From Clytia hemisphaerica (lineage: Eukaryota > Cnidaria > Hydrozoa > Leptothecata > Clytiidae), in contig CACVBU010000738.1 of the NCBI GenBank assembly GCA_902728285.1, positions 438,370-502,369 on the forward strand: 64,000 bases of DNA. The letters run 5' to 3'. Below, in pieces: positions 28,021 to 60,559 of the stretch. Numbering within the stretch: position 1 is the first letter of the stretch; each line of letters opens with the position of its first letter. The notes under the pieces were generated by a model. That model searched no databases. It saw only the letters and a program-made list of their open reading frames with translations, and was not told where the DNA came from. Made by a program: the position numbers and the translations under genes.

Positions 28021-28190
28021 ATGTTGGTACATCGACCACAATCTACATGGATGATCGGCGCTAGTAGAAATTTATCTACCGCTGGTAGCAGTAGAATCGG
28101 GTCTGCAAAATACACCTCACGAAGTGCTGCTCTTGATTTACATCAAAATGAGGCTAAAAACAAAAACTATCCATCATTGATTCTACAAGG
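28021..28190 (+). CDS. FAM149B1-like: FAM149 exon 1 (residues 1-57)
   Basis: Runs from the first in-frame ATG after an upstream stop at 27976 to the donor CAAGG|GTACAA, ending in phase 2. It encodes the basic Ser-rich N-terminus (YTSRSAALDL). A second in-frame ATG lies at 28051. A tandem TAGCAG inside could act as acceptor for the exon at 21900. Confidence 0.7.
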
Positions 28191-31100
28191 GTACAAACGA
28201 ATCTTATTGAATGTTCATGGTCTTTCGATTTTAGAATTGAAATCTGATAATGTTTCAGTATTCTTAAAACAATACGTGTTTCTTTGTTTGACAGGTATTC
28301 TCCTCACCGGGAAATCTTTTTAAAGGTGTCCCACCGGTTCCGTAACACCGAGATGTGTACAATTGATGAGTTAGTAGATATTTTCGGGTAAAACATGAAA
28401 TACAGTTTGTTTGAATCAGCTAATATAACTGGAATATTTTACTGTCAATTTTTGTATAAATTCCAAGTTTGAAATTCATAATTTCTTTTATCTAGACATG
28501 GTTTATCCAAGACGACAATCGAAAGCCTACGACCACTGCCTGAGAAAGCGGAGGAGCCCTCGCCTCATCACTCGACCATCCAACAACACACCCTCCCTGG
28601 TTACGGCTCCACCGCATTCGGCCATCAAGTGCCGCCACGGTTGCGTGGCTTATCGGTTGAATCAGACGAGGAGTCATTTATTTCGGAGGATAAACTTTCC
28701 ATAAGCGATGCTTCTTCGTTAGGGACTATAAGGTCCAGTAGCTCTTTCGGTTCGATACAGTCTGTCAGGACACTTGGAAATACAAGCACCGGTCGATCCA
28801 GTGTATATTCTTGGGGAAATGATGACGTAAGGGTTTATTTTTTACGATAACGAAGACTTTGATATATTATTAGGTACAGCGAGACTTTGATAGGCCCTGT
28901 GGGGAAAAATTCTCCACTTATTCACTTCCCCCTTCTCTTTACTTGAGTAATAATTCGAACAACTTAAAAATAGTTAACCTTGACTAATATCTCCAAAAGA
29001 TTCAGCATACGAACAAAAATGTAATGGCTTGAATCGAAGTGCTTTGTTTGAAAGGATATAACGTTTTAAAGATGAAGCCCGGAAAATTGCCTTACCGAAA
29101 AATCGAGTCCTAAATTCATCAATCGATCAATCAGCAGTCTAATCACACTTAATTCGAACTCCAATGGTTCTATATTAGGTATTATTTCAAGTGGTACTCT
29201 TAGGTTCCAAATAAACGGGGGGGGGTGGAAAATTTTCTAGATTTTAATAAACGGGGGGGACCTAGTTGCCGGGGGGGGTTGGAAATTGTACTTCTGAAAC
29301 CCAAAAATAAGGTAAAAATAGGCTACAATCACGCTATTTAGAGCAAAATAAGGGGCCTTCTCTTTGACAGCTGAAAATATTCTTAGAGATTAATAAACGG
29401 GGGGTCCTAATAAGGTCCGGGGGGGTTGGAAAATTTTCGAAAAATTAACAAGTGGGGGCGTTTATTTGGAACCTAAGAGTACTTATCAGTAATAAGTTCT
29501 TCGGTAAAAAAATTCGTCGACTAGAAATTCTGTCGCCTACCAATACCTTTCTACCAATAAAAATATCCTTTTATTTCTATCGAAGATTTTAGCTTTGAGT
29601 CTCAATTCAAGTTCAAGCTACCGTTTGAAAGTTTTCTAGAACTTTTTTTCGACTTTTGAGTAAAGGACTATGTCAGTTGTTAGATTTCGATTTTATATTT
29701 TAGGAGTTCGACAAGCAAGCTGCAAATAAAGTCTGGGACATCTTTGAAGATGTAGATCAATGTTTATTTCAAAACAGCATTAGTAAGTTGCTTTTTTGAT
29801 CACATTTTCCCATAACAAGTGAACCGCCACAAGCTTACAAAAATATTGCGAAAAGACAAAACATTACTTGCGAAATTTGTAAACAAACTGTATGCAGCGG
29901 ATACAAAATCAAAACAAATGTCACATGTTAAAATAAAAAATCAAACCAAATATGGCTAATTTTGATTGTTCAATTGTTTTACAAGTTTGTTTTGGACACG
30001 TGATTCTAATTGTTCTCTTTAATGACACGTGGTTCGGGCCATGTTTGCATTTTACTACTTTTATGTCCCTTTAAGAAGAGATTTTAAGAAGAAGGGATTT
30101 TTGATCGATTTTTACAAACAACATTCGCTTGCATTTTGAAACTTTTATGAATAAGGCAAAAATGATCCACGACCTACGCTACTCCACGCTTCAATACTGA
30201 AATTATATTCAGATAATATATCTTTACTTTACCCTCTAACGGGATACCATAAAAAAGGTTGTATGAAAGCTATCATCAATTTCAATTCATCAATTTGTCG
30301 AATAATATTTCCTGATATTTCTAAAAAAATTCAAATAAAATTGACTGAATATTGAGTATTCTGTTGTCGGTTTTTTTGCTTGGGTTTTGTCTTTAAACCA
30401 ACCCTTCACAGACAAACAGTTTTGTTGACGATGAAGAAAAAACCTATTTTAGACTTCACATAATCTGTTCTTTGTAATTACAATAACTAATCGACAATCC
30501 TTATGTTCGGAAGTAAAACTCTCGAAATGTGCCTGCCGTCTGACCAATTTTCGACTTCCTCAATCTTCTTGAAGGGTCGATATTTTCTTCTTTTTTTACT
30601 ATTCAATTGAGTCATGGGGGGAGGAGGTCACTACTAAAATCTCAAACCTATATGACGATTTAGAGGCCTGAAAATGATAATATACTGATAAGATACCCCA
30701 TTTAAATAATTCTGCTTCAGGTCATCTAGTTTTCTCTCGACCGTAAAGATAACAATGGACCAACCTTTGCTCATGATTTGAATCCTAATCCCTGTCTTCA
30801 AATGCACAAATATCTGCTAGGAAATAAAAGGGGTAAAAGATTAGGAAGGTCATTATCTCTTTGACCGAAAGTCAAAGGGGGTACTAGGTTTGTGAGGAGA
30901 CAGGTATGTGCGAGTCAGGATTCGACTCTGTGAGAAACCAAATTTCCAAAATTTTACCCCGTTTTTTTTCTCTACCCTGTGAGAGACTATTTTTCTCAAT
31001 TTTCAGTCAAAATTTTCTAACTTTGGTCCAAACTACGAAGGTTTATGACCCTGTGAGGGAGTTAAATTTTCATTATTTGTCTTTTTGGGACCCTGTCAGA

Positions 31101-34100
31101 GACTAGATTGCTGCTTTATTGGTTTTCTACTCATGTGAGAGACTATCGAGGGTGTATAAAAGGGACATCCACTGGATATCCACTTTTGAACAAAAATTGT
31201 TAACCCCCTGGATATCCGATATCCTCAACGGGGGGGGGGGGGGCACGGACTATTTTTGGAAAAGCCCATTGTGGCTCGCACATACCTAATACCATTTTTC
31301 GCCCCCCCCCTCAATTTCGAAGTAAGTACGCTGGACTCTCCTAAGTTTGACTTTCAAGGGAACAAAAACATTTTTGAATAAGACAGAGTTGAATGTATTG
31401 AATCAGATGGACAATATGCAACACATTTTTGTAACAGAATAACGTTGTATGTTTAAAGAATGTCTTTTCGATTTTTAGAAGAGGGTCAAGGAGATCCAAT
31501 GAAAGAAGAATGTTTTGATTGGAAAAGTTCCTTCAAATATATCAGGTAACAATGATGATAATTACTGTGGGAGAATCTTTCCGTTATCTTTATACATCAA
31601 AGGGTTTTCAGTGTTCTATGTTGTTTGAGGCCTAAAAAAGCGTACTTCTGAAAACATAATTCACTTATGTTACACGCAGGTATAATAAGCAGCAATAGTT
31701 TAGGGGCGAATTAAAGATATACTCTGGCAATCTATGTACCCACTACCCTTCAAAAAGTAGAAACGTATCCTTAAATTATCATTGTATTAATAATTTACTT
31801 AATTCAGTCTTATATACATTTTTATAAGAACAAACTATATAAGAATATAAGTGTTTGATGGCAAAAATATTGAGAACATTTAAAGGATCTGCCCTCTAAA
31901 AGACCCAATTTCTTAGGAAATTGCCCCAAAATTCTCACAAAATAGTGAAAATGAGAACTTTTTAAGAACATTTTTAGACTTCAAACTCAAAATGTTAAGA
32001 AAGAACATCCAAAAACTTAAACTTAAACTTTTTTTGAACATGTGATTGCAGGGTAACAGGAAGACAACTGACGCCAGACCATGAAGAAGGGACACAAATC
32101 ATCCCGACAGCCCTTCCAACTTCACACCGAAACAGTGATATCGATGAAGATGATGACATTTTATCTGTTAATGATGGTTTCTATGGAGATGACGAAATAG
32201 AAAGCGATACCACGAGGTATAAAGGACTGGGCTCTACTAAGAAAAAAGAGAGAAAAAAAGGTCTCGTCCTTCGGGAGACGTGGTGTTTTTTTCCCTGTGG
32301 CTAGAAAATCTCACTTGTCCTATGCCAAGATAATAAATAACACACCAAAAGATAATATTAATAATTGATAACACATTATTTGTAAAATTATTCCTTGACC
32401 CAGCTTCGAATTTTTTTGATTGATCGATGATTTTAATTTTCTTTCCATAGTTTGGGTGTATATGGTAATAAAGCAGGCATATTGTTAGATAGTGAAGGTA
32501 AATTCTAGTAAGATTATCTTTTTTGCAGTAAATTTATTTCCTTCCCCGTGAGAATTAGATCATCCTTAGAGGATGAAGATATGATTTGAGATTTTGCTTT
32601 CACTACGGATCTCTTTAAACAGTCACGTGTAAGAAGAAAAAAAATTCTCCTCCCTACTTTTTTGTTCGAAAAGTAGACGACATGATATTTTTAACATCGA
32701 GTATGTCTCCGTTCAAAGGTGTAAACCCATATGTTGTCAACCTTCTCTGATTCGAACCTCTACAATTCGAATATTTCTATAATTCGAACTAAAAAGCTGG
32801 TCCCCCAGCTGAGAAGTAATGTAAAATGCTCTATAGTTCGAACCATAGTCCCTTGAATATCGAATTAGAGAGAGGGACAACTGCAGATCTTATCACGAAA
32901 GTGATCATTCTATTTTCAGATGTACTTCCACATTTGAATGAGGAGGTGTTTGCACAACACGGTCAAGTTGAAGAGTTTTTTGCCTTCGATGAAAAAACAA
33001 TGTAGGTATTGTATGAGCCCGGGGTCTACTTAAGGACATTTGATTTATAGGCTGGATCGCTTGACTAATAATATGGTAGTACCGGTAATAATATGGTAGT
33101 TCTCGATTCTGAGATTTTGCTCGCAAGATTTTTGTTGTCTTTAAAGGTAATAAAAAGGATGAAGAAATGTTGAAAATATTGTATAGCAAATCCGTCATTC
33201 TTGTTGGTTTCCCCATCGTCAATTGGTTCTTATTTTTGTGTTTTTCTTTCAAAATAGCGATCTAGTCAAGTGCTCCTAGTCTACTTCACCGAAAATTATC
33301 ATAAAGCAAAGCTAAGCCAAAAAAGACTCTAGTCTAGTTTTCTAGTTGACTTGGTTTCATATGATAATGGCTCAAATGTTATCGAAAAGCTTTTTGTGTC
33401 ATGAGCCAAATTATATTCAAACTTATCATTTTGATCTTTTCTGGTAATGATACTATTTATTAATAAGTATAACTTTTAATACAAATCCTGTAATTTGGTA
33501 AAGAATATTTTTCTATTTTTCAGTGAAACTTCTAGAGACAGTTGTAAGGACATGAAAATGAAGCGAAGAGCTATCCCGCCAATCACACCACAAGCTCTCG
33601 CTCGTGATATGGCGTTGAGTGAATGCTTTGATCATGTCTGGTCACAGGTAACATTGTTGAAAATAAATATTATCTTTAAAAGGGAAAGTTTATCGAAAGG
33701 AATAATTTGTATTTTTTTTCTTAACAGGTCATCAGGGGTGGACTCGGGCAAAAAAAGATAGAGATCAAGTGCAGGGCGACGAGTTTTTACTTTCCCAGTC
33801 AAAGATGTAAAATTAGAAAAACGAGTATTTTTTTGGTAATAATTGGGAAAAATGAGAAATAATGGGGAAAGGTCAAGATTTTTAGCAAATCTTGGCGAAA
33901 AAAGTCAAAACATGAGTCACAACCCCGTCGATTGGTAAGGATGATACCCCCTGGGGTGAAAAATACAAATTTAAGTTAGCCTCCTCCCCTCCTCTTTCTA
34001 ATGGGGAAGAGTTTGGTTTCTTAACAGCCTTAGTTTCCTCCGGAATCTCACGATTTCAAACTTTGTAATTAAACTTTTGTTTTGAAACACCCGGTAGGTT

Positions 34101-37100: not shown

Positions 37101-40100
37101 TGGGCGTTTTTATAGTTATTTTTTGTAGACTGGGAAAGATTTTATTAAAGCGAACGCCAAAACTTACTGAAATAACTCTAATAATAAACTTAGCTCCTTT
37201 TTGTCCATCTTATCTCGAATTATCCCCTTTAGAGTTTTAAGTTTTACATAAGTGTTCCCGTTTCATATCAGACACATTCATGTTTTTATATCGGGCCGGT
37301 GTCTCCTATTGATGTGTTGTGTTAGATTTCGTGCTAAATAAACAAAAAATTGTTTTTCTTGTTGCTCCACATCCTTGTCAATACAATGTTAAAAGCTTTG
37401 TAAATTAAAATTGATCAGTAAGCAAACGATATCAGCCTATTTAAAAAAAACCCTTTAAATTTTGTTCCTTCTTTAAAAAAATTTATCTACCCATCCCCAT
37501 TTTGACTTTCTACTTACGTTCTTTTAGAAAACAAGTATTCTAATGTCAGAGATGATTTATTGGAAAGTGCGTTAACTTTGCATGGTACACACGATCCTTA
37601 CAAAATGCCACCGCAACTACATTCTCAGGCATGATATTTGATATTTTCTTCTCTCTTTATTTCACCTAAGGGATAACTTGAACCAAGGTAAGGTGAATCT
37701 TCTTTCATGGTATTCTTTTGTCTCAAGAAGTATCGATTCAAATGGCTGAATTCTATCTTCCCTAAGAGAACAGGACGAGAATAACGTTTAGACTCGATGT
37801 TCCAAATAAGCGAGCCTCTTCGAAAATTTACTGGTTCTTATAAAAATGAAAGTGCATCCATTCCTTTCCTGTATTAAAACTCAAAGATAGAATAGTGTCC
37901 CCCTACTGTATTAAAATTTGTAAACAAAAGGCTATTCGTATGTTAAAGGGGAACTCAACAAATTTTTCATTTTTATTTTTTTCCTGATTTTTGGTAATAT
38001 TAAGTATAAAAATGAGAAAGAAAGTATATAGGTTCGATCTCTCAAATAAAAATCATGAAAAATCTCTCTTAACTTCAGTTAAAAATATGTTCAAAAAATC
38101 ACCCCCTTTCTTTTTAAAAAAGATCGACTTCTCTTTGGATTATGACGTCAAAGTATTCAGAAAACAGAACAAATTCAGTTATGACTACAGTAAGTTTTCA
38201 GAATTCTGTTTTAAATAAGAAATAAATACATAGAAAAGTATTCCTGGTAAATTGTGGGTGATTTAGCTGAATAACAATAAAAAATCCAACAAGAAACACA
38301 AAAATTTAGTCACAAACCCTCTACCGAAGGGCCTGTCTTCACTGATTTTTAGCCTGAGAAGATAAGCATCTTCCTCTTTCTGAATGCAGCTACGTCATAA
38401 AACAGCTGAAAGTGCGTCTTTTTTATTTGATAAACAATTTCATTTTAGTAGAGGGGAGCCTCTTTTTAAAAGCTCATTAAACAAATTTTTAGAGTGAAAG
38501 GAGAGTTGCAACCTTGAAATTTTGAAATTTATCGTTGAAACAAACCATTTCAGGATAGAAAAAAAAAATCCAAAATATGTTGAGTTCCCCTTTAACTTCG
38601 TCTGTATAATGAAGTTATAAATCATTCAGTCCTATACCAGGTTGAACTTTGTTGTCCCAAATTTCATGTTTTCTGTCAATTTTGATGTTTCTCCAGAGCC
38701 AGTTTCATCAATATTTGCTTCTATTTTTGAAACATAAACTAGAAAAGTTATTTCATACTTAATTAAGAGGGCGAGAAAGTGCCTACTTTGCAACATTAAA
38801 AAGAACGACAAATTTCATCATCCACAACCCCGACCGAAAGTTACTGTACCCTATGTGGTAATAGCTGATTCTTTATTACTGTAGGGTTGTAATTTTAACC
38901 AGGATAATAGGAAATATATATGGATGAATTCGATATTTTTCTATGACATTGCTCTCTGTCAATTGTTTTCTTTTTGAAGTACCAAACCTTTGACTGCTTT
39001 GACTGTTTCGACTTCTCGTCTAACAGACTTTCGATTTATTTGCTTTGAGTGTTCTGATATTGTTTTTTGTTCGCTTTGTAGATGAAAATGAAACCAGATT
39101 TGAGCGATTTGAAAGACGTGATGACGATTCGTTCAGTTTCATTAAAACAACGTGCTCCCAGTACCAGCATGTAAGTGTATTTCTTCATTCAGTGTCGTAT
39201 CCAATAGGCCATTTCACAGTCACAAAGCGTAATGGGTAATCAGGACTACTGCGCGCTAATGACGACTTACTATTGGTCCAAAGCGTCCAAAGTTTTTAAA
39301 AATGTTGAAGATTTTTGCGTCTAGCCAACAGAAAGCCGTTATGTCGGCGCAATCAGATTACCCATGATCCATTTCGACTGTGAAATGGCCTATGTCGTCT
39401 TCCGAAAAAGACAAATTGACCGAAATCACCAGGAGATTTCCTAACATAGAGGTTTCTCGGGTTTTTTTAAGTTACGTAATTTCCGCCATTATTGAAGAAA
39501 ACGTTCGAATCACAGATATCTCATGTAAAACACTAGATAGAGCTACTTTGTTTTTCCCAAGCAACGGCAGGTGAATCAAAATAAGGTGTCATCTTTGCTA
39601 AAAGTAAGTCACAGTAGAAACCTTGGTTTTCACTGTTGAAACTTTTTTGACACTGCAATGACTTCAAAATTTGACGTCACTTCATCCAAGATGGCGAATT
39701 ATTTTGATCCAAATAGGGCAGGAAAAGCTACATCTAGTGTTTTATATAAGATATCTGTAGTTCGAATCGGTAGTACAAATCAAACGTTTGCTTCCATAAT
39801 GGCGGAAGTTGCATAAGTTAACAAAAGATGAAAAACCTCTATTCATGATATACACCACTGGAGAGTTTTCTGAGAACTTTTAAAATTTTCCACCCAATAC
39901 GTCATTTAAACAATAGAAGTGACGTATTGGGTGTAAATTTATGAAAATTCTTGGAAGACTCTTCAGTGTTGCATATCATGATAAATGCGAAGATGTCTAT
40001 AGTTTTCTTCCTGATAAAAAAATCGGAATTTAGTATCGATATTTAACTTGTATAGGACGTTGATATAGGACTAAGGTAGCTAGTTTCAAATATCTTATCA

Positions 40101-43100
40101 ATGGGATATGAAATCGAGGCCCCATTAAGGATGTTGGTGAGATGAAAGCCAACGGAGTGACATATGGAATACTAGGTTCTTTCTCCCTATCTCTCCCTAT
40201 CTACCTTTGTTCTTTTGATTTTTTTTATTAGGTACCGACACGAAGATGACGGACAGGTATAATAATTGTACTTGATTCTTACTTAACTAGAATATGATGC
40301 GATGACAGGCATATTTTAGAATAGAACTTACAGCAAAATATTTTCATTTTTGTTAATTAGAGCGGAGAGAGAACACATTTCCTCTCATATTCTGGTGTCT
40401 CTCACGCGTCTTTCTATAAGAGTCCGTCCCAGTTTTAACAGATTCTGTTTACCATTATTGTTGCCACATCAGGCGTGTTAATAGTTGATTTTAAGATTGC
40501 TTCAATTTTCTTTCTCATAGGTTACTAACCCTAAAAAATATAATTTTTAATTCAAATTTTTCGAATAGAGTCGTCTGGGTACATCAAGTAGCACGATGAC
40601 ACAAAAAACGTTTGGTGGTAAAACAAGTAGCTTGCTTTACGACCGCATGATGTCTGCAAAGACTCCTAAACGGTAAAAATTTCTTCCAGCGTTTAATCAG
40701 ACACAATAGACCTTTTCACAAATTACGTCACGAACATCACTTGCCTCGTTTTGAAATTATTGCCAAGGTGATAAACTCCAAGCGAATTTCATTAAAACCC
40801 CGATTAAAACTACTTTTCATTTATGAAGAAAATCATTTAATGTCTCAAGGGATATAATCACCATGGTAATTGTTTGAATACGAGGCAAGTGATGTTCGTG
40901 ACGTAATTTATGAAAAGGTCTATTAGTTCTTTTATACGTCGATAGCTATAAGTGTATTGGATTTTGAATATCTTTGTCCGGATACGAATTATGTTTTTAA
41001 ACTTTTTTTGAATCTGTTACATCATGTTAATTTTACAACCCATCTTTTTTACTATATCGAAATGGTTTAAATTTTCTATTCGGTTTTAGGACGATACGCT
41101 TGCAACCATTACAACCTCCTAAAACAGCTGGTCACGTGGTAAGACTAATTCCATTTTTACGTTCCGGTGTTTTTAGGTAAAAAGCGAAAAAGCCAACATA
41201 CCTCTCTGTCGAGGAGGTCTATTTTGGAAAAGATGACCCACCTGGATTTTTTTTCCAATTTTTCAGGACCCCCTTGCATATTTTTCTCATTTTTTGGACC
41301 ACCCTGGATTTTAGAACCCGTTTTCCAGACCACCCTGGACGTCACACCTCCTCAACATAGGAGGTACAGACTATTTTGGAGTAGCCGATTAGTTCGAATA
41401 CGTTTCTTTGGTGGCAACTTACACGTTTTTTTTTTTTATTAGAACCTAGTTTATAAGAACATATAGGCTGAAATTCGTCGAAAAATTAAGAACATCTTAA
41501 GAACATGCCCAGCCTCAGTTTGGAAAAAAATGACGAGAAACTACAATTTTTCCCTCTTTTTAAGCAGTTTTAACCGAATTTAGGGGTGGATCTTCAAAAG
41601 TCGAGAGTCGAATATTGTCCAAATTTTGCCAAATTTAAGTGCTCTTTATTTTGTATCATATTGTCGATTTAGAGTAGTCTGAAAAATTAAGAACGCATTT
41701 AAGAACATTTTAGGCTGAAAATTGCTAAAAAAAATAAGCACATCCAGGCTCAGCCAAATTTTAGGTGTTCTAATAAAAAAAAAAACGTGTATTTTATTAA
41801 CTAATAGATAACTAACACATATAACTTAAAGATTATTATTAGTCTTTAAAAGAATAATACTGAGTCTGAGTAATTAGTATTACTTCGAATAAGCGCCCTT
41901 TCTTTGAGGAAGAAATTAAAAAAACGTGCCTCACCGAATAAACGCCTCTCCCCGAGGGCGTTTATTCAATGCAAGTACTGTAAGAAAGTATATTATAAAA
42001 AATGATAATGATAATGATTGTACCCCTTAACGGTATTCGAACTGACTTTGACATAAATTATTCCATAAACGCCCCCTCTCGAATATACGCCCCTTTTAAA
42101 AAACTAAAAAAAAATAAATAAATAAACGCCACAGGCGTTTATTCCAAGTAATACGGTAATTATTGTGTACTCTTGTAGATGTGTTAAATGACATGGAAAG
42201 AGTAATTTTTCAATTTTCTATGACTTCAGGACTCCAATATAGGAGAGATACGAGGGACGAGACTGTCAAATGTCACTGTAGGAAACGGTCAGCAATCATG
42301 GTAAGATTTTGTGCAATAAATCTTTGGAAGTGGGATAGCAAACGCTTAAAGGAGCGATGGTCAAGTGGTCAAAGGCGTCAGCGTCTCGAACCAGGGTTTC
42401 GCGAATCGAATCCTCGCTCCTTTCAATGTCATCCGTTCAGTTGGCTGGCCGTGGATCCCGTGAAAACAATCACTGTCTAAAAGTCCTAGATTACTGGGCT
42501 ATCCACTATCTAAACGTTATACATAAGCCTGGGCGTTAAAATTTATATATAAGGTTTAGATAGTGGATAGCCCAGTAATCTACCAAAAATTTCGGGTTGG
42601 TGTCTGATTGTGCAGCGTTAAGTTTAATAGCTTCGAACTTTTTCAAAGTACTATCTAATATCTAAATTTGGTTACAAATTTCGGTGTTTTTTAGATTAGG
42701 GTCGTCCAAAATTTGATACAGTAATATAGGTGTAATATGTTATAATACGAGATTATATGCTATTGAGGGATATTAGTTTGTTTATCATAATACCATAACC
42801 TAACCTCTTTTAAACTTAGTCGTCTAGCGACTTTAAATCTTAGTTGTAAGGTATAATTTAAATATTACTGCTCTAGTCATTGAAAGTTGAGGGATCATAA
42901 TATGTAATAGTTATCGGACAGTTGCGAGTACAATATGAGAAATATTTTAAGAGTTCCGGGATTTTTCCGTACAATATTTTCCGAGCCTTTAGGCGAGGAA
43001 AATATACGGAAAATCCGGAACGAGTGAAATATTTCCATATTGTACGAGCAAATGTCTGATAACTGGTTTATCGGTGATCCAAAAAATGCACTTTTTGTTT

Positions 43101-46100
43101 TGGAAAAAACGCAGGGCACTTTTGTAGCAAAGTGACGTTAGATTGCTACTGCCGCTACAATGCAACAACATCTTTTCGTCAATTTATATTTTGTACATGT
43201 AAAATACAAGATATATTGTACTCTTTTTAACCAATCAGATTGCAGATATTTTTTGGATCGCCGATAACTACTAGTTTGGAGATATAAATACGATGTTACG
43301 TCAAACTGTCAATTTATTTTCCTTTTGTTTGTTTCAGGGTTGCAAGGAATGGTACATTACCACCGCTGGATCGTTTGGGTACAACTGAGGAACTCCGAAA
43401 AAGCCCAGTAAGTTGAATACTCCCATACAATCAGGTGGTTCAGAAAACAGTGCTTAAATGTTTATTTGTCATTTGAAAGGAACCAAAATATTTAAATGAG
43501 TATGAATCTTGTGAAGAAATATTGATAGTCAATTGATCGAAAGTTGCCGTTTCATGCATGAAAAACTTATAGATGGAAAATCTTCCTATTTTATGGATTA
43601 GAATAACAATCAGAAAACAACATGTTTTTCGAAAGTTACATTATCCCGAGTGCAGAGCTTGAAACCACAGGGATTTATTTTGGATTCCGAAACATCACTC
43701 GAAATGGAATCTTAGATTTCCTTTTCGAAAATTCCCCTTATGTTAAGTTCTCGCCTTACTTAACTTAAGGACTTTTTGCTCTTTTCGCCAAAATTACTTT
43801 ATATTTCACCCTAGCCAGCCTTGAGCTGAAAATTGCGTTTTGTAGAACACACTTCAATCATCTTCAATCAAAATCTATGATTTATTAGTTTATAAAATAT
43901 CTTTCCAGTGGTGTATAAGTCGGTGCAATATTTCTTACATAAAAAAAATGCAACCTGTCCACATACAGAATTTAGACAAGCTTTTATTTAGTTTTTTTAA
44001 CATCTTTTTTTTTTCAGAAACGAAATACACGAGCATCAAGTGCTGTAAATGCACCGTCAAAGTGAGTTTTAAACATTTGACCTTCCCCCACATGTTTTTA
44101 AAGTCTAAAACGTTTTATTTGTTACTCATGGTGGTTTTTTGCCTGTTTTCCTTCCCTTCATTAGCCAACAACGATTGGTAAACTTTTCCATTTCTAGGAA
44201 ATTTCTCAAATATTTCTAAACAAAAAAGTTGCATGGTGGTGTAAAACACCCCTGTTAAAAATAGGTTTAATGTTAATATTGCTTCATGACTAGATTTCTT
44301 TTCTTCCAGACATTCATCTCAAAGGGATCGAGGAGGAGGAGGAATTAGCATGCTGCCCGACTCACGTCCCAACACCAATCACTCTTACAGGGTAAGAATG
44401 AGCCTTTCCATTTTATATCCATTCAGGAGGGTGGACGAACATTTCCAGAGAGTAACCTGAGAAAAATTTCCAGGGGTGTTTTTTCATTTTTCCAAGGGGG
44501 TAAAAAGTAATTCTAAAATTTCCAGGGGGTAAAAGACTGATTTCAGTTCGTCCACCCTTATGATTTAGATATGAAAAGAATTTTTCGAAGAGTATATTTT
44601 CAAATTTAGCCATTTTCCAGGGGTATCCACACATTTTCAATGATTTCATTTTGACTTAAAAAGGTTCGTTCACCCCCTGTATGGTTTTTTTAATGGAACA
44701 GCCCAATGTCTCCCTTTTTAACTTCAACATAATTGCGTCCTAAATGTCAGTCATAATAAAGAACAAACAATTGAACTATTCTCAGTTGTTTGGTTTTCAC
44801 TAACCCATATTTTTGGTAATCACTCTTGTGATCACCCTAAGAATACCATCAAGAAATAGGTTTCTTCTATTATCTTGTTTTTTCCTCTTGCAACTTCAAA
44901 TTTTGAAGTTAAGATTCTAAAAGTTTGAAAACGAAGATGAAAAATGAAGAAGAAAACGTGAAGAACGACAAAAATTTTCTTTTCTAAAACTTTGAACTTC
45001 GTTGATTTCAAATATGTATTCAGATTCTTATCTTTCTTTTTAATAAAAAGTTAAAACCCTTTGCAATAGGTCCATTATCGCTGATTTTGACCTATTTTGG
45101 AGGGCTATAACTTTTAGGTGTTAAACGTTTCTTTTTTTAATCCAACAGAGTGATGTGAGGACGCCCCACCAATTCAACAGACCAGCTTCTCGGTCACGTG
45201 ACTTTCCGGTCAACAAATTATACGGACAGTCACATCCTCAAACGATTAACGAGAATTCTTATCTTCGAATTTCTTCGCATTTTCGTAACGACCCTCCTAA
45301 TCAACAGGAGGTTGATGATTTCGTTCTTTGGGGTAGGTTCAATTTTTTTAAATCACTCTTATATGGGTTGTTTCTGTCAAACTTGCTTTTCAGGATAATC
45401 GCACGATGAGTTATTTTTTCTTTTTTTTTATTTAATCGTTAATTGCATCCTGTAGAGAGCAATTAATCGTTAATCACACTCTTCAATGACGCGCCAATGT
45501 TTACAAAATTGATTTTAATGTTTTTCTTACATTTTTTATCGAACGTTTTAATTGCATTCGAAATTCATTTTATGAGAAAGAAAATCTTTAGGTAAACAAT
45601 AAAAGAAAAACATAGAGAGAAGACTTTTAGTGTAATTTACTTTCCTAATGGGGAAAAAGTAGTGAAAAAAATGGTGCGATTAACTCGTAATCACATAATA
45701 ACTCGTACAATTCGAAAATTGCACTCGTGATTTTTTTGTTTCAAATTTTCCTCGTCCCTTCGGAGTCGAAAAATTAATAACAAAAAAATCACTCGTGCAA
45801 TTATTCTCGAATTGCACTCGTCATCATGTGATTACATATATTATAATCTTTCGGACCCACTCCTCTCACTACAGGGTGAATTAAAGACAATCTGTAAAGT
45901 TATATCTAATAAGCTTTCTAAAAGAAGCAGTTACTTTACTTTACTTGATCTTCATAGCACCAAAACCGGGAGGAGATGTTTTTACAAGCTTTTATTTGAT
46001 TTGGTTGGTCGTTAACCAGTAATAAAACAATTTTGTTACTTTTTTAAAGAACGCGTTATTTTTATTCCTTCAAATGACCAATTATTAAAGTATCTTATAA

Positions 46101-49100
46101 AAACTCAATCTCATCTTCAAACCAAAGTAGGATTCGAATAATAGAATGTCGAATTAAGGTCGAATTGAGTGTAGTACATTGATTTAATTGTCTGCATTTT
46201 CTTATAATCGTACTCGACAAAGTCGCAGGTCGACAAAAGAAATTTACAGTCTGCATTTTATTTCAACCTAGCCTAGAAATCTAAGCTAGTTTGATTCAGT
46301 CACTTGGATAAATCTGATGGTTAAGTTGTGACCGAATAACTAGCTTAGGGACAGTAAACTCGGTAGCTTATCAACTGACAACAACGACAATTCAAATTTC
46401 GCGGCGAGGGATAACGTAAACTCACATAATTTGCATAATTATTCGTCGTTGACTTAATTCGTTTCATATCAAAAAAAATCACACCACACACAGAACATAA
46501 TATCAAAACATTATTTAGATTTTTTTATTTTGTCTTTTTTTCTATCTTCTGATTGGCTCTTATTGTAAGATTAGATAAACAAACTCTCCGTCTTACAGTT
46601 TATGCGCTCCTTTTGTAAAATATAAAACGAAATTCTATTGTAAAGTGTGCCGATGGAGAGTGAAGGAAAAATTTGTTTATTTTTTTCAAAAAGTTATGTT
46701 TTATGGAAAAGTCAACAAGAGACAAATTCGTTCCTTGAGTGATAATTTTGTGATTTGACATAAAAGTATTTTGTATGATTTTTACAAAGCTCATCTTAAA
46801 AATAACCTTCAACAAGATACTGTAAATAAAAATTACTTTAGACTAGCAGGCTAAAATACCGTATACAAAACAATGTAATCAATCCCCCCCCAAAAAAAAA
46901 CATTTTCTTGAGTCTTGAATTCGTATAGCTGTCACTGAAAATAAGCACCGACAGTTTTATGTTCTTCGAAAACGAAAGATGTCATTGTCTGTAAAATCGA
47001 CCATAAAGTCTCAAATTCATAAAACAACAAGAAACCACAACCAGTCAAAAACCAAGAACTGTCTATCATCTATCCATTACAGCATGATACAATATCATGT
47101 CATGCAATCCAATCAGAATACAGAACTACAGCATAGGATCTGTACAAGTACTCTCTCTTATATATTGCCACATACGATAGTCAATGTTCAATCACAAATC
47201 TTTACTTTATTATTTGCCATTCTGGAAACAAGCAACTTTTGCTGTCTTTACGACGAATAGCATTCTTTTTTCTTCGTCAGTTCAATTCTTCCCAAAAACA
47301 AGAGGAGCACTATCAGGTCGGGATCAGGCCTTGAAAACTTTTTCTGATACAGTATTCCAAATATCCATCATAATATAATCGAAGAAAGATCTTGCATTAA
47401 ATGAGTACTCGTTTTCTGATAAAATAATTATAAACTTCTATCACTCACGAAAACTCCCGATTTTTTACCACGTGACCCACTCTGACCAATCAGAAGCTCA
47501 CCGAATCCTGCGTTCATATTATGAACGCGCCCTTTCCCTAAGCCAGTATTCCAAGGCAAACTTAAAATCCGTAAATATAAAAAATGTAATAAATATAATA
47601 AAAACGCTATATTGCCATAAGCCGTGTGTCCTAGCCTTGTGAATACGGGCTTAGTTAACTAGGCTAATTTCAACCCAAGCTTCATGGAATATATCAATTT
47701 TTCTAATCATTCTATTTTTTATTTATTTTTTATTTAGGACATGGGCCACCACTGATATCACATCAACAACGTCGAGGTAAAACTGCAAATCAAAGGTAGT
47801 CCCTTCCCCTCAATGTAATCATAGTTTTTTTTCTAATAATTTATTGAATTTAGTATTTTTTAGGAATATTTTCGTACATTCTGACCTAACTGATATGGAA
47901 CTTAAGATGTTGTCGTATAATTTAGATCTTGATGTTATTCAAAAGACGCGCCAAAGCTTAACAAGAGTTTTTAATGTTATTTTTTGTCGACGGTTGACAT
48001 GACAGCCAGAATTCACTGAAACTTTTCCATTCTCCGAAGGTTTGGAAGTTCTTAAGCTGAACCTAAAAGATTTTTGGAATATTTCCTTGATTTAAAACCA
48101 AGCAAGAACTTTCAATAATGTTTATATTTTTGTGTAAATAATATTTCATCCTATACATATATTATTACTGTACAGAGGAACTAATTTTTCCACTTTTTAT
48201 TCAAAAAAAGCAATTCTAATTTATTGGACAAAATAAATTTTCAACTCTTTTTGGAGTTCAATGGATTTACTTGAAATTTTATTTTGATTATTCACTAATC
48301 CCGTGACCCCTGTCACCTTGAATGATCTACTACACAAATCAAAATTCTAAATGGTGAAAATAAAGAGCATAAACCGAGGAGTGTTAAAAGCTCCCACATT
48401 CCATTGGGAATCTCTTTGTTATCGATTTCTCGATTTGGGATTTTTTTTGGGTTCGCAAAAGGTAAGTGGTCTATCGTGCTTGACCTGCTCAATGTGTCGA
48501 GAAAAAGAGGCTGTTTTGACTTTTGTTTGAAATAGTCCTGGGGGTACTAGGTTTACGAGATGACGATGATGTATGAGCCAAAGTTCGAAAATCGACCTTT
48601 TGAGAGACTGAATTTCGATAATTTTGTCCAATTTTTGACTTTTTGCCCCCCCCCCCTGAGAGAAACTATTTCCCCAAAAGTTTAGCCAAAATGTTCAAAT
48701 TTTAGTCCAAATTTTTTAAATTTATGACCCTTTCAGTCAATCAATTTTTGATATTCCTTAATTTAGGAACCCCCACTCGTTACTTTTTAATGATTTTGTA
48801 CCCCTTTGAGGGAATTTTGAGGGTGTGAATAAGGGACCCTTATGGCTCGCACATATCCGACCTATTTTGCCTAAGTATCCCCCTGGGCAACTAGTACATC
48901 GTTTTTACAAAAAATTTCAAGATTTTTTAAAGATTTTTGCAAAATTACACCCAAAAAACTACTGTCAATGTCCTCATGATCAGGCTACATGATCACAAAA
49001 ATGGTCAGTATTCTGAATATTGGTCCATCACTGAAAAATAAACAGCTAACAAATCTGATTTAAGCTCTTACCCGGAGGTGTACCCTTGCCGACCTATGGG

Positions 49101-52100: not shown

Positions 52101-53401
52101 TATGAAATACATCGAAAAAACACGTCATAAGTAAGATTTAAATGACGTCATTACATAATAATAATAATAATAATAATGATATATTTCTGGCATTTCCAAA
52201 ATTTACATTTGGCTCTTCACCTGAAAATTCTGTATATAATATATGTGCAATGTCTAGAAAAAAAATTGTAAAATAACCTGGTAGTATACTGAAGAAAAAT
52301 TGGGACCGTATGCGGACAAGCAGATAGGGACGAAGCGGTGGGCTAGTATGACGAATAAAATGATTAGGATTAAGAAGTATAAGGGGTAAAATGTAAATAG
52401 TGATAGTGATAGAGCTGGACTAAAACCTAAACAAATCCCAGTATCTGAGTATGCTAGCTGAGGCCATCGCAATGTGTGCTATTATAAAAAATTAACGAAT
52501 ATATTTAAAAAAAAAATACTAACATAATGTTATAAGCTAGACTAGACTAAGGTTCAAGTACTATTGGTGGCTAGAGGTAAAGTAAGCGACAAAATAGATC
52601 TAAGAACTCGGTGAGATAGAATCACGACAGAGCGTAAGATAGAATGAGTATAACTTGCATAGATTGCAACACCGAAGGCTGTGTAAAAGTGTACTGGACC
52701 TTGCAAAACACGACCAGTATTTTGACATAAACAAGACGACTAGAAGTCGAAAATTTCGCCTTAAATAAGACGAAAAAAAAAGAACATTGAAATCCTTGGA
52801 GAACAATACACACAATTAAAACTTGAAGAGGAATGCGGAAAATTAATAAGATAAACGAAAAGGCAAGGTAAAATTTTACGTCATTTCCGGTCAAAAATAT
52901 CCAATATTTTGAACTTGAAAAGAGACAAGGTTCGAGATTCCAAGCAATTCGTAGAAAAGTTTTCTTTCATTCTAGCCGAAAATCTGCTTTCGTTTTTTAA
53001 TGAACAGGAAAATACAGGTTGGTATAGCGGCAAAAACGAGTAACTTGAGTGTGGATTTCATGAATCTAAAAATTATATAATTCCAAGTATTCGTAATTCC
53101 AAAATTTCGATAGTACATAGTTCATAGAAAATAGCTAGCAATTTACAAATTTACAAGTAATGTGCAAATTTGGCTTTTTTTCACATCCGGTGGATTTCCG
53201 GCTTCCAAAATAATAAAAATTAGTTCTCAGTGTTTCGTTTACATAAATGTCACATTTCGAGTAATCAAACCATACAAAGTTTACATACCAAAACGTTTTT
53301 TTTTTCCAACAGGAACAAATCACCAGACATTTCGAAGATTGAGGTCAAGTCTGGATACATACGTCGAAGAAGTCACAGTGGAATCATGGAAATCGCGATA
53401 A
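28021..53401 (+). CDS. FAM149B1-like: FAM149 family protein (FAM149B-like), 21 coding exons, 690 residues
   Basis: Exons below were joined by splice consensus and phase; the total is 2073 nt, an exact multiple of three with no internal stop. The product resembles vertebrate FAM149B1, with conserved blocks in order: LRPLPEKAEEPSP, SVYSWGNDDEFDKQAANKVW, EECFDWKSSFKYIRVTGRQL (DUF3719 region), VEEFFAFDEKTM, IPPITP...FDHVWSQ, NGTLPPLDRLGTTEEL, and LPDSRPNTNHSYR. In humans FAM149B1 localises to primary cilia, works with TBC1D32 and CDK20, and is mutated in a Joubert-type ciliopathy; the same role here is inference. At 690 residues it is somewhat longer than the human protein (about 580). The start is the ATG at 28021, although an upstream exon at 21900 is possible. 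All introns are GT-AG except one probable GC-AG. An AATAAA lies at 53648. Confidence 0.85.
28496..28826 (+). CDS. FAM149B1-like: FAM149 exon 2 (residues 57-167)
   Basis: Acceptor TTTTATCTAG, donor GATGAC|GTAAGG. The frame reads through LRPLPEKAEEPSP, an acidic patch (SVESDEESF) and a Ser-rich stretch to SVYSWGNDD, which corresponds to the SDFSWG motif of vertebrate FAM149B1. Confidence 0.88.
29194..29482. mobile_element. 289-bp MITE in FAM149 intron 2
   Basis: The ends GTACTCTTAGGTTCCAAATA, then AACG, are perfect inverted repeats. Adjacent G-rich runs (GGGGGGG with GTTGGAAA) recur three times inside. The left end begins with GTA, so a TA target site is possible. Confidence 0.85.
29704..29782 (+). 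CDS. FAM149B1-like: FAM149 exon 3 (residues 168-194)
   Basis: Acceptor TATATTTTAG, donor ATTA|GTAAGT. It encodes EFDKQAANKVWDIFEDVDQC, then LFQNSI, the family helix that precedes the DUF3719 core. Confidence 0.9.
30855..31300. repeat. Dispersed repeat in FAM149 intron 3, related to 48535-48905
   Basis: It shares with 48535-48905 the order: GGGGGTACTAGGTTT, a GTATG.GAG word, repeated CCTGTGAGAGACT phrases, a poly-C/G run, TGGCTCGCACATA, and CCCCCTGG. GGTATGTGCGAG and CTCGCACATACC face each other across the element. Confidence 0.65.
31479..31545 (+). CDS. FAM149B1-like: FAM149 exon 4 (residues 194-216)
   Basis: Acceptor CGATTTTTAG, donor ATCAG|GTAACA. It encodes GQGDPMKEECFDWKSSFKYI, the heart of the DUF3719 region. 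Confidence 0.9.
32052..32216 (+). CDS. FAM149B1-like: FAM149 exon 5 (residues 216-271)
   Basis: Acceptor GTGATTGCAG, donor ACGAG|GTATAA. It encodes VTGRQLTPD and a long acidic stretch (NSDIDEDDDILSV, then GDDEIESDTT). Confidence 0.9.
32451..32497 (+). CDS. FAM149B1-like: FAM149 exon 6 (residues 271-287)
   Basis: Acceptor CTTTCCATAG, donor GTGAAG|GTAAAT. It encodes SLGVYGNKAGILLDSE, comparable to the FGIRGKKL segment of the vertebrate protein. Confidence 0.85.
32920..33001 (+). CDS. FAM149B1-like: FAM149 exon 7 (residues 287-314)
   Basis: Acceptor CTATTTTCAG, donor ACAAT|GTAGGT. It encodes GQVEEFFAFDEKTM, matching the EEYLAFD motif of FAM149B1. Confidence 0.88.
33524..33647 (+). CDS. FAM149B1-like: FAM149 exon 8 (residues 314-355)
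   Basis: Acceptor TCTATTTTTCAG, donor TCACAG|GTAACA, phase 0. It encodes KRRAIPPITPQALARDMALS, then ECFDHVWSQ, matching the family PPI.P...VFDSVW block. Confidence 0.92.
34406..34466 (+). CDS. FAM149B1-like: FAM149 exon 9 (residues 356-376)
   Basis: Acceptor TATTTTTAG, donor AGAG|GTTTGT. It encodes AVKTLSDLLKLYIKARSVDR. The donor is weak but the phases on both sides agree. Confidence 0.8.
34665..34840 (+). mobile_element. tRNA-derived SINE in FAM149 intron 9
   Basis: It has an A-box-like GACCGTAGTGCAAAGG and a near-consensus B box GGTTCAATCCC about 50 bases later, then a non-tRNA body (AAAAACTTCGTACCTAGTAC, then GGATGCCGCTCTGATTG). The B-box match and order indicate a polymerase III SINE head. 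The 3' limit is a guess. Confidence 0.6.
35203..36018. mobile_element. ~816-bp foldback element with arms made of an 18-bp repeat
   Basis: The outer ends are inverted: CCCGGTATTACGGAAGCCGA, then GAAGGGCCACACAAAATAA, on the left; the mirror TTATTTTGTGTGGCCCTTCT, then CGGCCACCGTACGGTATGG, on the right. Inside each arm is a tandem run of about 17-18-bp units (ACAAAATAAAAAATTCCAAT and its reverse complement). The resulting open frames (complement of 35124-35534; 35767-36045) encode only Phe/Leu-rich repeats and are not genes. It lies in FAM149 intron 9. Confidence 0.8.
37528..37628 (+). CDS. FAM149B1-like: FAM149 exon 10 (residues 376-409), probable GC donor
   Basis: Acceptor ACGTTCTTTTAG. The frame reads NVRDDLLESALTLHGTHDPY, then KMPPQLHSQ. 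There is no GT at the end; CTCAG|GCATGA is a plausible GC-AG donor and gives phase 0, matching the next exon. An alternative GT donor inside (GCATG|GTACAC, near 37582) would join in a different frame that is also open, but it loses the family-like MTIRSVSLKQR segment of exon 11. Confidence 0.7.
37942..38596. mobile_element. 655-bp inverted-repeat element in FAM149 intron 10
   Basis: The ends GTTAAAGGGGAACTCAACAA and TGTTGAGTTCCCCTTTAAC are inverted copies. There is no domain inside; the small open frames (37991-38218 and complement of 38440-38625) are Lys/Phe-rich and unconvincing. Confidence 0.8.
39082..39170 (+). CDS. FAM149B1-like: FAM149 exon 11 (residues 410-439)
   Basis: Acceptor TCGCTTTGTAG, donor AGCAT|GTAAGT. 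It encodes MKPDLSDLKDVMTIRSVSLK, then QRAPSTS, which aligns with the NDLLVHGMPLQPR region of vertebrate FAM149B1. Confidence 0.82.
39203..39393. mobile_element. 191-bp MITE in FAM149 intron 11
   Basis: Left end AATAGGCCATTTCACAGTCA, right end ACTGTGAAATGGCCTAT. The next intron-borne MITE at 40705 begins AATAGACCTTTTCACA, so the two are probably related. Confidence 0.8.
40232..40256 (+). CDS. FAM149B1-like: FAM149 exon 12, 25-nt microexon (residues 439-447)
   Basis: Acceptor TTTTTTTATTAG, donor GGACAG|GTATAA. It encodes YRHEDDGQ, and phases fit both neighbours. Very short, so less certain than the others. Confidence 0.65.
40569..40672 (+). CDS. FAM149B1-like: FAM149 exon 13 (residues 448-482)
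   Basis: Acceptor TTCGAATAG, donor AAACG|GTAAAA. It encodes a Ser/Thr/Lys-rich segment (TFGGKTSSLLYDRMMSAKTP). Confidence 0.82.
40705..40924. mobile_element. 220-bp MITE in FAM149 intron 13
   Basis: It has near-perfect ~45-bp inverted ends: AATAGACCTTTTCACAAATT, then ACGTCACGAACATCACTTGC, mirrored by GCAAGTGATGTTCGTGACGT, then AATTTATGAAAAGGTCTATT. Confidence 0.88.
41090..41138 (+). CDS. FAM149B1-like: FAM149 exon 14 (residues 482-498)
   Basis: Acceptor TTCGGTTTTAG, donor CACGTG|GTAAGA. It encodes RTIRLQPLQPPKTAGHV, comparable to the RRRNPPPRTLHP stretch of FAM149B1. Confidence 0.85.
41877..42154. mobile_element. 278-bp MITE in FAM149 intron 14
   Basis: The ends GTATTACTTCGAATAAGCGC and GCGTTTATTCCAAGTAATAC are inverted copies. 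Internal GAATAAACGCC words recur in both orientations. The AATAAACG core resembles the ends of the MITE at 29194. Confidence 0.8.
42230..42300 (+). CDS. FAM149B1-like: FAM149 exon 15 (residues 499-522)
   Basis: Acceptor ATGACTTCAG, donor TCATG|GTAAGA. It encodes DSNIGEIRGTRLSNVTVGNG. The phase matches exons 14 and 16. Confidence 0.78.
42351..42420 (+). tRNA. Degenerate tRNA-like sequence (pseudogene or SINE head)
   Basis: The ends GGAGCGA and TCGCTCC pair perfectly as an acceptor stem, and the D-arm region TGGTCAAGTGGTCAAAGGC matches an A box. A CTCGAAC loop-like stretch would give a Ser CGA anticodon, but the anticodon stem does not pair. The B-box-like GAATCGAATCC lies too close to the acceptor stem, with no proper T arm. 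I therefore read it as a decayed tRNA or tRNA-derived SINE head, not a working tRNA. It lies in FAM149 intron 15. Confidence 0.45.
42487..42582. repeat. Perfect 29-bp inverted repeat (hairpin) in FAM149 intron 15
   Basis: Arms 42487-42515 (TAGATTACTGGGCTATCCAC...) and 42554-42582 are exact reverse complements around a 38-base loop. Such perfect arms suggest recent origin. It follows the tRNA-like sequence by 66 bases. Confidence 0.9.
42909..43064. repeat. 156-bp imperfect palindrome in FAM149 intron 15
   Basis: The left half (AGTTATCGGACAGTTGCGAG, TACAATATGAGAAATATTT, GTTCCGGGATTTTTCCGTA) is mirrored by the right half, ending GTACGAGCAAATGTCTGATA. Probably a small MITE. Confidence 0.75.
43338..43407 (+). 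CDS. FAM149B1-like: FAM149 exon 16 (residues 522-545)
   Basis: Acceptor TTTGTTTCAG, donor AGCCCA|GTAAGT. It encodes VARNGTLPPLDRLGTTEELR, matching the NNLLPPIGTAEVE motif of FAM149B1. Confidence 0.9.
44018..44061 (+). CDS. FAM149B1-like: FAM149 exon 17 (residues 546-560)
   Basis: Acceptor TTTTTTTTCAG, donor TCAAA|GTGAGT. It encodes KRNTRASSAVNAPS, similar to the SSRAQSAVVDEP stretch of FAM149B1. Confidence 0.85.
44310..44391 (+). CDS. FAM149B1-like: FAM149 exon 18 (residues 560-587)
   Basis: Acceptor CTTTTCTTCCAG, donor ACAGG|GTAAGA. It encodes SQRDRGGGGISMLPDSRPNT, then NHSYR, matching the LLPDFFPRPNT motif of FAM149B1. Confidence 0.92.
45149..45332 (+). CDS. FAM149B1-like: FAM149 exon 19 (residues 588-649)
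   Basis: Acceptor TTTAATCCAACAG, donor TTTGGG|GTAGGT, phase 1. It encodes FNRPASRSRDFPVNKLYGQS and ends in QQEVDDFVLW. Confidence 0.85.
45687..45835. repeat. 149-bp imperfect palindrome in FAM149 intron 19
   Basis: GTAATCACATAATAACTCGT, then TTGCACTCGTGATTTTTTTG, is mirrored by CAAAAAAATCACTCGTGCAA and ACTCGTCATCATGTGATTAC. Probably a MITE core. Confidence 0.7.
47738..47776 (+). CDS. FAM149B1-like: FAM149 exon 20 (residues 649-662), with an alternative donor at 47795
   Basis: Acceptor TTTTTTATTTAG. It encodes GHGPPLISHQQRR. The donor CGAG|GTAAAA at 47777 (phase 1) leads to the 690-residue product. A second donor CAAAG|GTAGTC at 47796 (phase 2) also keeps the frame open and would switch the frame of the last exon. 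Confidence 0.75.
48535..48905. repeat. Dispersed repeat in FAM149 intron 20, related to 30855-31300
   Basis: It carries the same ordered words as the copy at 30855: GGGGGTACTAGGTTTACGAG, TTTTGAGAGACTGAATTT, a poly-C run, TATGGCTCGCACATAT, and TATCCCCCTGG. Confidence 0.65.
49319..49638. mobile_element. ~320-bp MITE with a nested pogo/Tc1-type palindrome
   Basis: Outer inverted ends: TATAAATTTTCGCGGGGATT, then ATATTTCGCGAATT, against the mirror AATTCGTGAAATTAAATCCC, then CGTGAAAATTTACA. Inside, GAGTCTCCATTACTCGAA (49464) faces TTCGAGTTATGGAGACTC (ending about 49540), resembling the ends of pogo/Tigger-type MITEs. Similar ATTCGAA fragments occur near 32700-32870 and 46130-46160. Confidence 0.7.
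50755..51010. mobile_element. Diverged second copy of the 9795-10084 MITE family
   Basis: It shares in order AAGCAAGAAACAT-like words, GACGGATTGAATTTA, GGCGGTAAATGTTA, AAAACCACGCGGACCGCG and GGCTTCAAATCCTAC with the element at 9795. The terminal inverted repeats have decayed. Confidence 0.6.
51364..51443. repeat. Cluster of TAGGATA motifs
   Basis: Five or more copies of (A/T)AGGATAA, including the self-complementary TATCCTAATTAGGATA, occur within 80 bases, with a further copy at about 51871. Function unknown; possibly MITE debris. Confidence 0.45.
51985..52157. repeat. Dispersed repeat, diverged copy of 2975-3260
   Basis: Shares AGAAGCGTATT, GAGAGGATTTCGGAAAGTGC and AAGATATCGACCAAACACTA with the segment at 2975-3260. 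Confidence 0.4.
52158..52960 (-). mobile_element. Non-coding LINE- or SINE-like remnant with (ATT)n tail
   Basis: On the minus strand it ends in AAATGCCAGAAATATATCAT followed by a run of ATT (52158-52180), as many non-LTR elements do. The body is pyrimidine-rich on the minus strand, like the 3' end of the LINE at 62.1-62.4 kb. The open frames within (complement of 52254-52472 and 52600-52894) have no domains. It lies in the last FAM149 intron. Confidence 0.45.
53313..53401 (+). CDS. FAM149B1-like: FAM149 exon 21, terminal (residues 662-690)
   Basis: Acceptor TTTTTTTTTCCAACAG. In phase 1 it reads GTNHQTFRRLRSSLDTYVEE, then VTVESWKSR and TAA. In phase 2 (from the alternative donor at 47795) the same exon reads SPDISKIEVKSGYIRRRSHS and runs to a TAG at 53466, ending in a hydrophobic segment (IRIVIFVLSMVGWW). 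The phase 1 reading is preferred because its donor is the stronger. Confidence 0.65.
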
Positions 53402-53647
53402 GAATTGTTATTTTTGTATTATCAATGGTCGGTTGGTGGCTGAGCGCGACAGTTGATTTACTATAGAAATGCTGAAAATCATAAAATTTTATGTTTCCAA
53501 TGAGCAAATACAGCATATTGTGAAAATCGGATGAAACGATTATGATACAATGACTTTTAAGCGCATATTTTGCAGTATCGATGTCGGCGATTGTATCGAA
53601 TGTTGGTGATTGTAATGAAAATTTTCGAAGCCATTCGACTCTTTGTT

Positions 53648-53653
53648 AATAAA
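53648..53653 (+). terminator. Polyadenylation signal of the FAM149 gene
   Basis: A canonical AATAAA lies 247 bases after the TAA at 53401 and about 180 bases after the alternative stop at 53466. Confidence 0.6.
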
Positions 53654-53659
53654 GACTGA

Positions 53660-59985: not shown

Positions 59986-60151
59986 TATTTCTTCAAAGCT
60001 GATTAATGAGTACTTTTGTTCATCAAACCCAACACAGATTTTTTAAACATACTGCGATTTACACATCACACAGATGTAAGAAGGACCCTCCTGTTTTTTC
60101 TGCCTGAATTTTTCGACCCTTTTTCCTGAATTAAGTTTCTTGTTGTTAGTG

Positions 60152-60539: not shown

Positions 60540-60559
60540 AAGTACTGACGTACCGATTT

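What the first reader, a model, noticed from the sequence alone, without database searches (positions are those of the whole stretch)
28021..53401. Complete FAM149B-like cilium gene reconstructed across 25 kb
No single open frame reveals this gene; it appears only when short exons are joined. All 21 exons have splice consensus, the phases agree at every junction, the total length is a multiple of three, and the conserved blocks come in the vertebrate order. This gives a full-length early-animal member of a poorly characterised cilium family.
Basis: partly seen in the sequence, partly recalled or inferred. Interest (0 to 1): 0.75.

Follow-up and report, generated by a model that had tools for sequence, protein, structure and literature searches.

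The report
Intron-split FAM149 cilium gene
The stretch holds a real, intron-rich animal gene of the FAM149 cilium family; it is an ordinary new copy of a known gene, and its 3' end and several middle exons are still unsettled.

Summary
The joined exons are a real + strand gene of the FAM149 family. The spliced 5' part passes Pfam's DUF3719 cut-off (30.7 bits, cut-off 23); the three exons of that region tested singly do not. The hit needs exons 31479-31545 and 32052-32216 joined (34.5 bits). A homology-free splice/coding score puts the region far above shuffles (chain 155.7, maximum 33.1 in 10 shuffles).

Not upheld: phase agreement is no evidence by itself, since shuffled DNA gives phase-consistent chains of up to 41 exons at the lax setting. 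The end at 53401 is not established; a stop at 47799 fits too. Exons 1-2, exon 7 and exons 10-16 have weaker or mixed support; the recalled-protein alignment used other stretches between 33648 and 43337. "Early animal" could not be tested.

Most likely function, by homology: a regulator of the CCRK/CDK20-ICK/CILK1 kinase cascade, with TBC1D32, that limits cilium length. New member of a known kind; low interest.

The parts
28021..28190 (+). exon 1, proposed start ATG (low to moderate confidence; weak donor, 2.4 bits)
   Evidence: open frame from ATG; no homology support
28295..28387 (+). exon 2 (93 bases, optional in phase; moderate)
   Evidence: acceptor 12.3, donor 5.6 bits; kept in homology-free chains; partly matched by the recalled protein at the low intron penalty, not at 12 or 15
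28496..28826 (+). exon 3 (high)
   Evidence: 36.0 bits, best exon of the chain; aligns with recalled human FAM149B1
29704..29782 (+). exon 4, segment just before the DUF3719 match (high)
   Evidence: residues 199-224 of the joined product, before the hit at 231-273
31479..31545 (+). exon 5, first part of the DUF3719 match (high)
   Evidence: DUF3719 34.5 bits when joined to exon 6; no hit alone or with exon 4 only
32052..32216 (+). exon 6, rest of the DUF3719 match (acceptor high; donor unsure)
   Evidence: donor at 32216 scores 3.0 bits, the homology-free chains use 32282 and the recalled-protein alignment 32260
32451..32497 (+). exon 7 (moderate to low)
   Evidence: 17.8 bits in the homology-free chains; skipped by the recalled-protein alignment at both penalties
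32920..33001 (+). exon 8, conserved block EVFAQHGQVEEFFAFDE (high)
33524..33647 (+). exon 9, conserved block AIPPITPQ..FDHVWSQ (high)
   Evidence: 32.1 bits
34406..34466 (+). exon 10 (low to moderate)
   Evidence: acceptor 7.6, donor 4.7 bits; in the recalled-protein alignment at penalty 12, not at 15; omitted by homology-free chains
38362..38411 (+). exon 11 (low; weak acceptor 3.0 bits)
   Evidence: in the alignment at penalty 12, not at 15; chain at penalty 14 uses only its donor, chain at 17 omits it
39082..39170 (+). exon 12 (moderate; frame unsure: phase 0 or phase 2)
   Evidence: acceptor and donor 8.8 bits each; phase differs between the two chains; not used
40232..40256 (+). exon 13, 25 bases (low)
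   Evidence: in the chain at penalty 14, not at 17; not used
40569..40672 (+). exon 14 (low to moderate; weak acceptor 2.1 bits)
   Evidence: in the chain at penalty 14, not at 17; matched at the low intron penalty, not
41090..41138 (+). exon 15 (moderate)
   Evidence: 21.5 bits; matched, not
42230..42300 (+). exon 16 (moderate)
   Evidence: 23.8 bits; matched up to 42277, not
43338..43407 (+). exon 17, ARNGTLPPLDR block (high)
   Evidence: 24.7 bits; at both penalties
44018..44061 (+). exon 18, TRASSAV block (high)
   Evidence: 23.2 bits; at both penalties
44310..44391 (+). exon 19, LPDSRPNTNHSY block (high)
   Evidence: 26.2 bits; at both penalties (at 15 with a later end)
45149..45332 (+). 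exon 20 (moderate to high)
   Evidence: 19.0 bits; 45149-45197 matched by the recalled protein at penalty 12
47738..47799 (+). terminal exon of model A, stop at 47799
   Evidence: acceptor 9.5 bits; in phase; only a 3-residue match
47738..47776 (+). same exon spliced onward in model B (reader-like)
   Evidence: donor 6.0 bits
53313..53401 (+). terminal exon of model B, stop at 53401
   Evidence: acceptor 12.5 bits; AATAAA at 53648; no homology support

Best explanation
A protein-coding gene of the FAM149 family on the + strand, from about 28021 (or an ATG slightly downstream) to at least 45197, with about 20 short exons. By homology its product is a ciliary regulator that works with the CCRK/CDK20 - ICK/CILK1 kinase cascade and TBC1D32 in intraflagellar transport turnaround, and so limits cilium length. 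Shown: most exons of the 5' part, their frame, and a DUF3719 domain assembled across an intron. Inferred from work on human FAM149B1 and worm xbx-4: the ciliary role. Inferred only: expression, exact start, exact end, middle exons and partners in this animal.
For: DUF3719 at 30.7 bits (cut-off 23) for the joined 5' part; 0 of the 3 exons of that region tested alone. Exons 5+6 joined 34.5 bits; exons 4+5, and exons 4+6 without 5, no hit. + strand exon statistic 10 against shuffle mean 1.05, maximum 3. Chain score 155.7 against shuffle maximum 33.1 and - strand 22.1. The homology-free chain at penalty 17 has 17 exons: 14 are exactly in my model, 2 share its acceptor, 1 is not in it. Recalled human FAM149B1: spliced alignment 111.4 bits, against reverse complement 26.8, reversed protein 36.1 and five shuffled proteins 35.6-46.8. 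Literature: PMC8622907 (abstract and passages), PMC13126320 (part 1 of 3), PMC9391949 (passages).
Against: No transcript or second species could be compared. Its C half is weaker: 48.0 against a shuffle maximum of 41.3 in 12. At penalties 12 and 15 its alignment uses none of my exons 12-16 and skips exon 7. The homology-free chain at penalty 14 has 26 exons: 16 exactly in my model, 3 sharing one border, and 7 not in it (33728, 37671, 39562, 40056, 47281, 52575, and 53313-53343 in another phase), so the method over-predicts. Exons 12-20 as a 198-residue piece match no Pfam family. The six-frame DUF3719 search of the whole genome gave 0 matches, as expected for a domain split by introns, but its 14 controls gave none either.
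Confidence: 0.93

Rival explanations
1. Same gene, but the transcript ends at 47799 (model A) or in another 3' exon, and the 53313-53401 exon is not part of it, or belongs to an alternative isoform.
For: 47738-47799 is an in-phase terminal exon with a 9.5-bit acceptor. Beyond 45197 the recalled protein matches only 3 residues, at 47738-47748. The intron to 53313 would be 5.5 kb.
Against: 53313 has the strongest acceptor of the model by a small margin (12.5 bits against 12.4 and 12.3), and an AATAAA lies about 250 bases after 53401. AATAAA/ATTAAA is common here, though: 27 sites in 44001-54000, also at 48232 and 48359.
Confidence: 0.5
2. A FAM149 pseudogene or decayed copy.
For: Weak sites at exon 1 (donor 2.4), exon 6 (donor 3.0), exon 11 (acceptor 3.0) and exon 14 (acceptor 2.1); several middle exons uncertain.
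Against: The conserved blocks are open in a single consistent frame and introns are present, so it is not a retrocopy. Exons were picked for being open, so the lack of stops by itself says little.
Confidence: 0.04
3. A chance chain of open frames with no gene.
For: Phase-consistent chains of up to 41 exons arise in shuffled sequence at the lax setting.
Against: Scores far above shuffles and a DUF3719 match above the curated cut-off.
Confidence: 0.01

Closest known systems
Human FAM149B1 (Joubert syndrome gene; JBTS36 in a cited title)
   Same: conserved blocks in the same order, 138 of 557 aligned positions identical (25%) in blastp of model A to the recalled sequence
   Different: 116 residues before the aligned part against 11, and a different C-terminus; 682 or 704 residues against 582 (recalled)
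C. elegans xbx-4
   Same: reported FAM149B1 homologue with ciliary function (PMC13126320, PMC9391949)
   Different: not compared by sequence here
FAM149A
   Same: same family, by recall
   Different: not compared; A against B not resolved

Membership tests
FAM149 / DUF3719 | DUF3719 domain (PF12516) above gathering score | tested here: met
   30.7 bits against 23 for the 5' part; 29.9 for full model A and 34.5 for exons 5+6; model B was not scanned
FAM149 / DUF3719 | collinear conserved blocks outside DUF3719 as in vertebrates | tested here: inconclusive
   seen only against a recalled human sequence: N half strong, C half modest, middle exons not recovered at penalties 12 and 15
FAM149B rather than FAM149A | closer to B than to A in a tree | not testable with these tools
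   no animal protein collection; own-genome search for a paralogue not answered (and repeats)
FAM149B | localises to or regulates cilia through CCRK/ICK | not testable with these tools
   reported for homologues only (PMC8622907, PMC9391949, PMC13126320)
FAM149 | expressed spliced transcript | not testable with these tools
   no RNA data

The most novel reading that the evidence does not exclude
The short C-terminal blocks (LPPLDR, TRASSAV, LPD-RPNT) keep their order between this animal and vertebrates in an otherwise poorly conserved tail, so they would be old docking motifs for the CCRK-TBC1D32 module rather than vertebrate additions.
Probability: 0.3. Interest if true: 0.35.

Novelty: new member of a known kind. 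Interest (0 to 1): 0.18.

Why it matters
It gives one more distant sequence for a Joubert-syndrome cilium gene, useful for marking conserved blocks. It also illustrates a gene whose domain appears only after splicing; a six-frame search did not find it, although that search had no working positive control. It does not change what is known of the family.

Tried and rejected
Rejected: phase agreement as evidence. Exon 39562-39603, which does not follow exon 12 in the phase I chose, and the other extra exons of the chain at penalty 14. The first spliced alignment, with intron penalty 6 (291.3 bits, no control run), gave spurious micro-exons and was redone at 12 (111.4 bits, with controls) and 15 (74.6 bits, no controls). 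At penalty 12 the middle used 37528-37584, 38362-38411, 39208-39235 and 39411-39570; at 15 it used 35584-35701, 37528-37584 and 39411-39570; neither used my exons 12-16, so that part stays uncertain. Local alignment of model A to the recalled protein by halves gave 251.2 (shuffle maximum 97.8) and 134.4 (maximum 111.4) in 300 shuffles each, but model A was chosen partly with that protein in view. A - strand enrichment in 1-25600 (6 exons above 20 bits) was looked into; in the listing, 5 of 6 such rows come from a reverse-transcriptase ORF.

Led nowhere: whole-genome DUF3719 search, 0 matches; Pfam on five single-frame pieces, 0 families for 5 of 5 at E up to 1; PDB search with the 386-residue part, best E 1.4, to eIF5B; GTDB genomes with 64 residues of exons 5-6, 127 pattern matches and no relative; Rfam and tRNA scans of the window, none. 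Exons 8-10 gave a sub-threshold JAKMIP_CC3 match (13.2 bits, cut-off 30.2), disregarded. Lineage: contigs 947-951, 1 and 2 were sampled at their first 3,000 or 10,000 bases for a mitochondrial contig; the first 3,000 bases of the two shortest, 15.8 and 24.5 kb, were read for ORFs and did not look mitochondrial, and no tRNA was found in the nine loci, scanned with the bacterial code. Papers: DUF3719, 0 papers; FAM149 with cnidarian, 0 papers. Passages seen in PMC12665794, PMC10721274, PMC7615029 and PMC12158429 were reference-list entries, plus a gene table in PMC7615029. Three key papers are not held; their titles are known only from reference lists.

Full report
What was checked. The finding claims a FAM149B-like gene of 21 exons between 28021 and 53401. 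The exons were not listed, so I rebuilt the gene.

Gene model. Candidate exons were scored with generic splice-site matrices (from recall, not trained on this species) and a simple codon score. The 5' part joins nine exons, 28021-28190 to 33524-33647, in one frame of 386 residues. Further in-phase exons lead to 45149-45332, and then either to a stop at 47799 (model A: 21 exons, 682 residues) or, through 47776, to a stop at 53401 (model B: 22 exons, 704 residues).

Is it more than chance? On the + strand of 27901-53500 there are 10 candidate exons (best per 100-base bin) above 20 bits and 5 above 24. The - strand has 1 and 0; 20 dinucleotide shuffles have means of 1.05 and 0.05 and maxima of 3 and 1. 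The best phase-consistent chain scores 155.7 with 26 exons at penalty 14, against 22.1 for the - strand and a maximum of 33.1 in 10 shuffles. At penalty 9 it is 319.5 with 43 exons, against 132.3 and a maximum of 148.4. That control also shows that phase agreement alone says little: at penalty 9 shuffles gave chains of 34.8 exons on average, up to 41. At penalty 17 the homology-free chain has 17 exons, of which 14 are exactly in my model, 2 share its acceptor and 1 (47281-47316) is not in it. At penalty 14, 16 of 26 are exactly in it, 3 share one border and 7 are not in it. This is not independent of how I chose the model, which came from lists made with the same scores.

Family test. The joined 386-residue product matches Pfam DUF3719 at 30.7 bits (cut-off 23, E 2.6e-7, residues 231-273). 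The three exons of that region tested alone do not match, 0 of 3. Model A matches at 29.9 bits. Exons 5+6 joined give 34.5 bits; exons 4+5 give nothing, and exons 4+6 without 5 give nothing. So the domain is built across the junction 31545/32052. A six-frame search of the genome does not find it, as expected for a domain split by introns; that search also gave nothing in its 14 control genomes, so it has little weight. No solved structure is related (best E 1.4).

Order of blocks. Plain tblastn gives no significant single hit: the best is E 0.069, four of the top five lie in model exons 4, 3, 9 and 5, and the second best lies on the other strand. A spliced alignment at penalty 12 scores 111.4 bits, against 26.8 on the reverse complement, 36.1 for the reversed protein and 35.6-46.8 for five shuffled proteins. 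By halves it is 93.7 against a shuffle maximum of 37.2, and 48.0 against 41.3, in 12 shuffles each. It recovers exons 3-6, 8 and 9 and exons 17-19 at both penalties, and exons 10, 11 and part of 20 at penalty 12 only; it does not recover exons 7 and 12-16. blastp of model A gives 105 bits with 138 of 557 identical, but model A was chosen partly with this protein in view. This supports one gene through to about 45197; it is a lead, since the reference is recalled and was typed after I had seen exons.

Weak points. Exon 1 has a weak donor (2.4 bits) and no homology. The donor of exon 6 is open: 32216, 32260 or 32282. Exons 10 and 11 add 111 bases and can be dropped in phase; the strict chain drops them. 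Exon 12 is read in different phases by two chains. Exon 14 has a weak acceptor (2.1 bits). After 45332 almost nothing but splice scores speaks.

How it works. By homology (inference): human FAM149B1 loss gives cilia dysfunction and Joubert syndrome (PMC8622907, abstract), and the worm homologue xbx-4 is needed for normal cilium structure (PMC13126320, part 1 of 3). A figure legend in PMC9391949 states that XBX-4 regulates DYF-18 (CCRK), and its reference list has a title placing FAM149B1 with TBC1D32, CCRK and ICK in intraflagellar transport turnaround; that paper is not held. The likely role is a scaffold or regulator of that kinase cascade that limits cilium length. Expression and function here are untested.

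Novelty. A new member of a known kind. In the library searched, 59 papers hold FAM149B1. The lineage claim 'early animal' could not be tested (and repeats).

Noticed in passing
54883-61402, - strand: Helitron-type element (by recall of such elements) just 3' of the gene: Pif1 helicase with an Exo_endo_phos-like segment (24.1 bits, just under its cut-off of 24.5) at 54883-56979, and DUF6570 (25.5 bits, cut-off 24.3) at 59669-59992.
   Followed up: partly
61022-61045, - strand; L006 1049-1333 and 2548-2817: A 2A-like motif DIELNPGP after a hydrophobic stretch, upstream of DUF6570 on the same strand. Contig C947 (L006) has a relative with the same motif, 47 of 95 identical, and downstream a piece like the window's DUF6570 ORF, 26 of 45 identical, though itself below the DUF6570 cut-off (14.0 bits). 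Two papers hold both 'Helitron' and '2A peptide', neither term in title or abstract (listing only).
   Followed up: partly
434-1627 and 62966-63517, - strand: Reverse-transcriptase (RVT_1) matches, 66.9 and 65.6 bits.
   Followed up: no
3939-4683, 8244-8762, 14903-15339: Tandem arrays with units of 45, 62 and 29 bases.
   Followed up: no
5915-6289, + strand: Open frame of 124 residues that looks coding but has no Pfam match at E up to 0.1; perhaps an exon of an upstream gene.
   Followed up: partly
35232-35505 and 35832-35990: Short-period repeats (21 and 20 bases) inside the large intron before exon 11 or 12.
   Followed up: no
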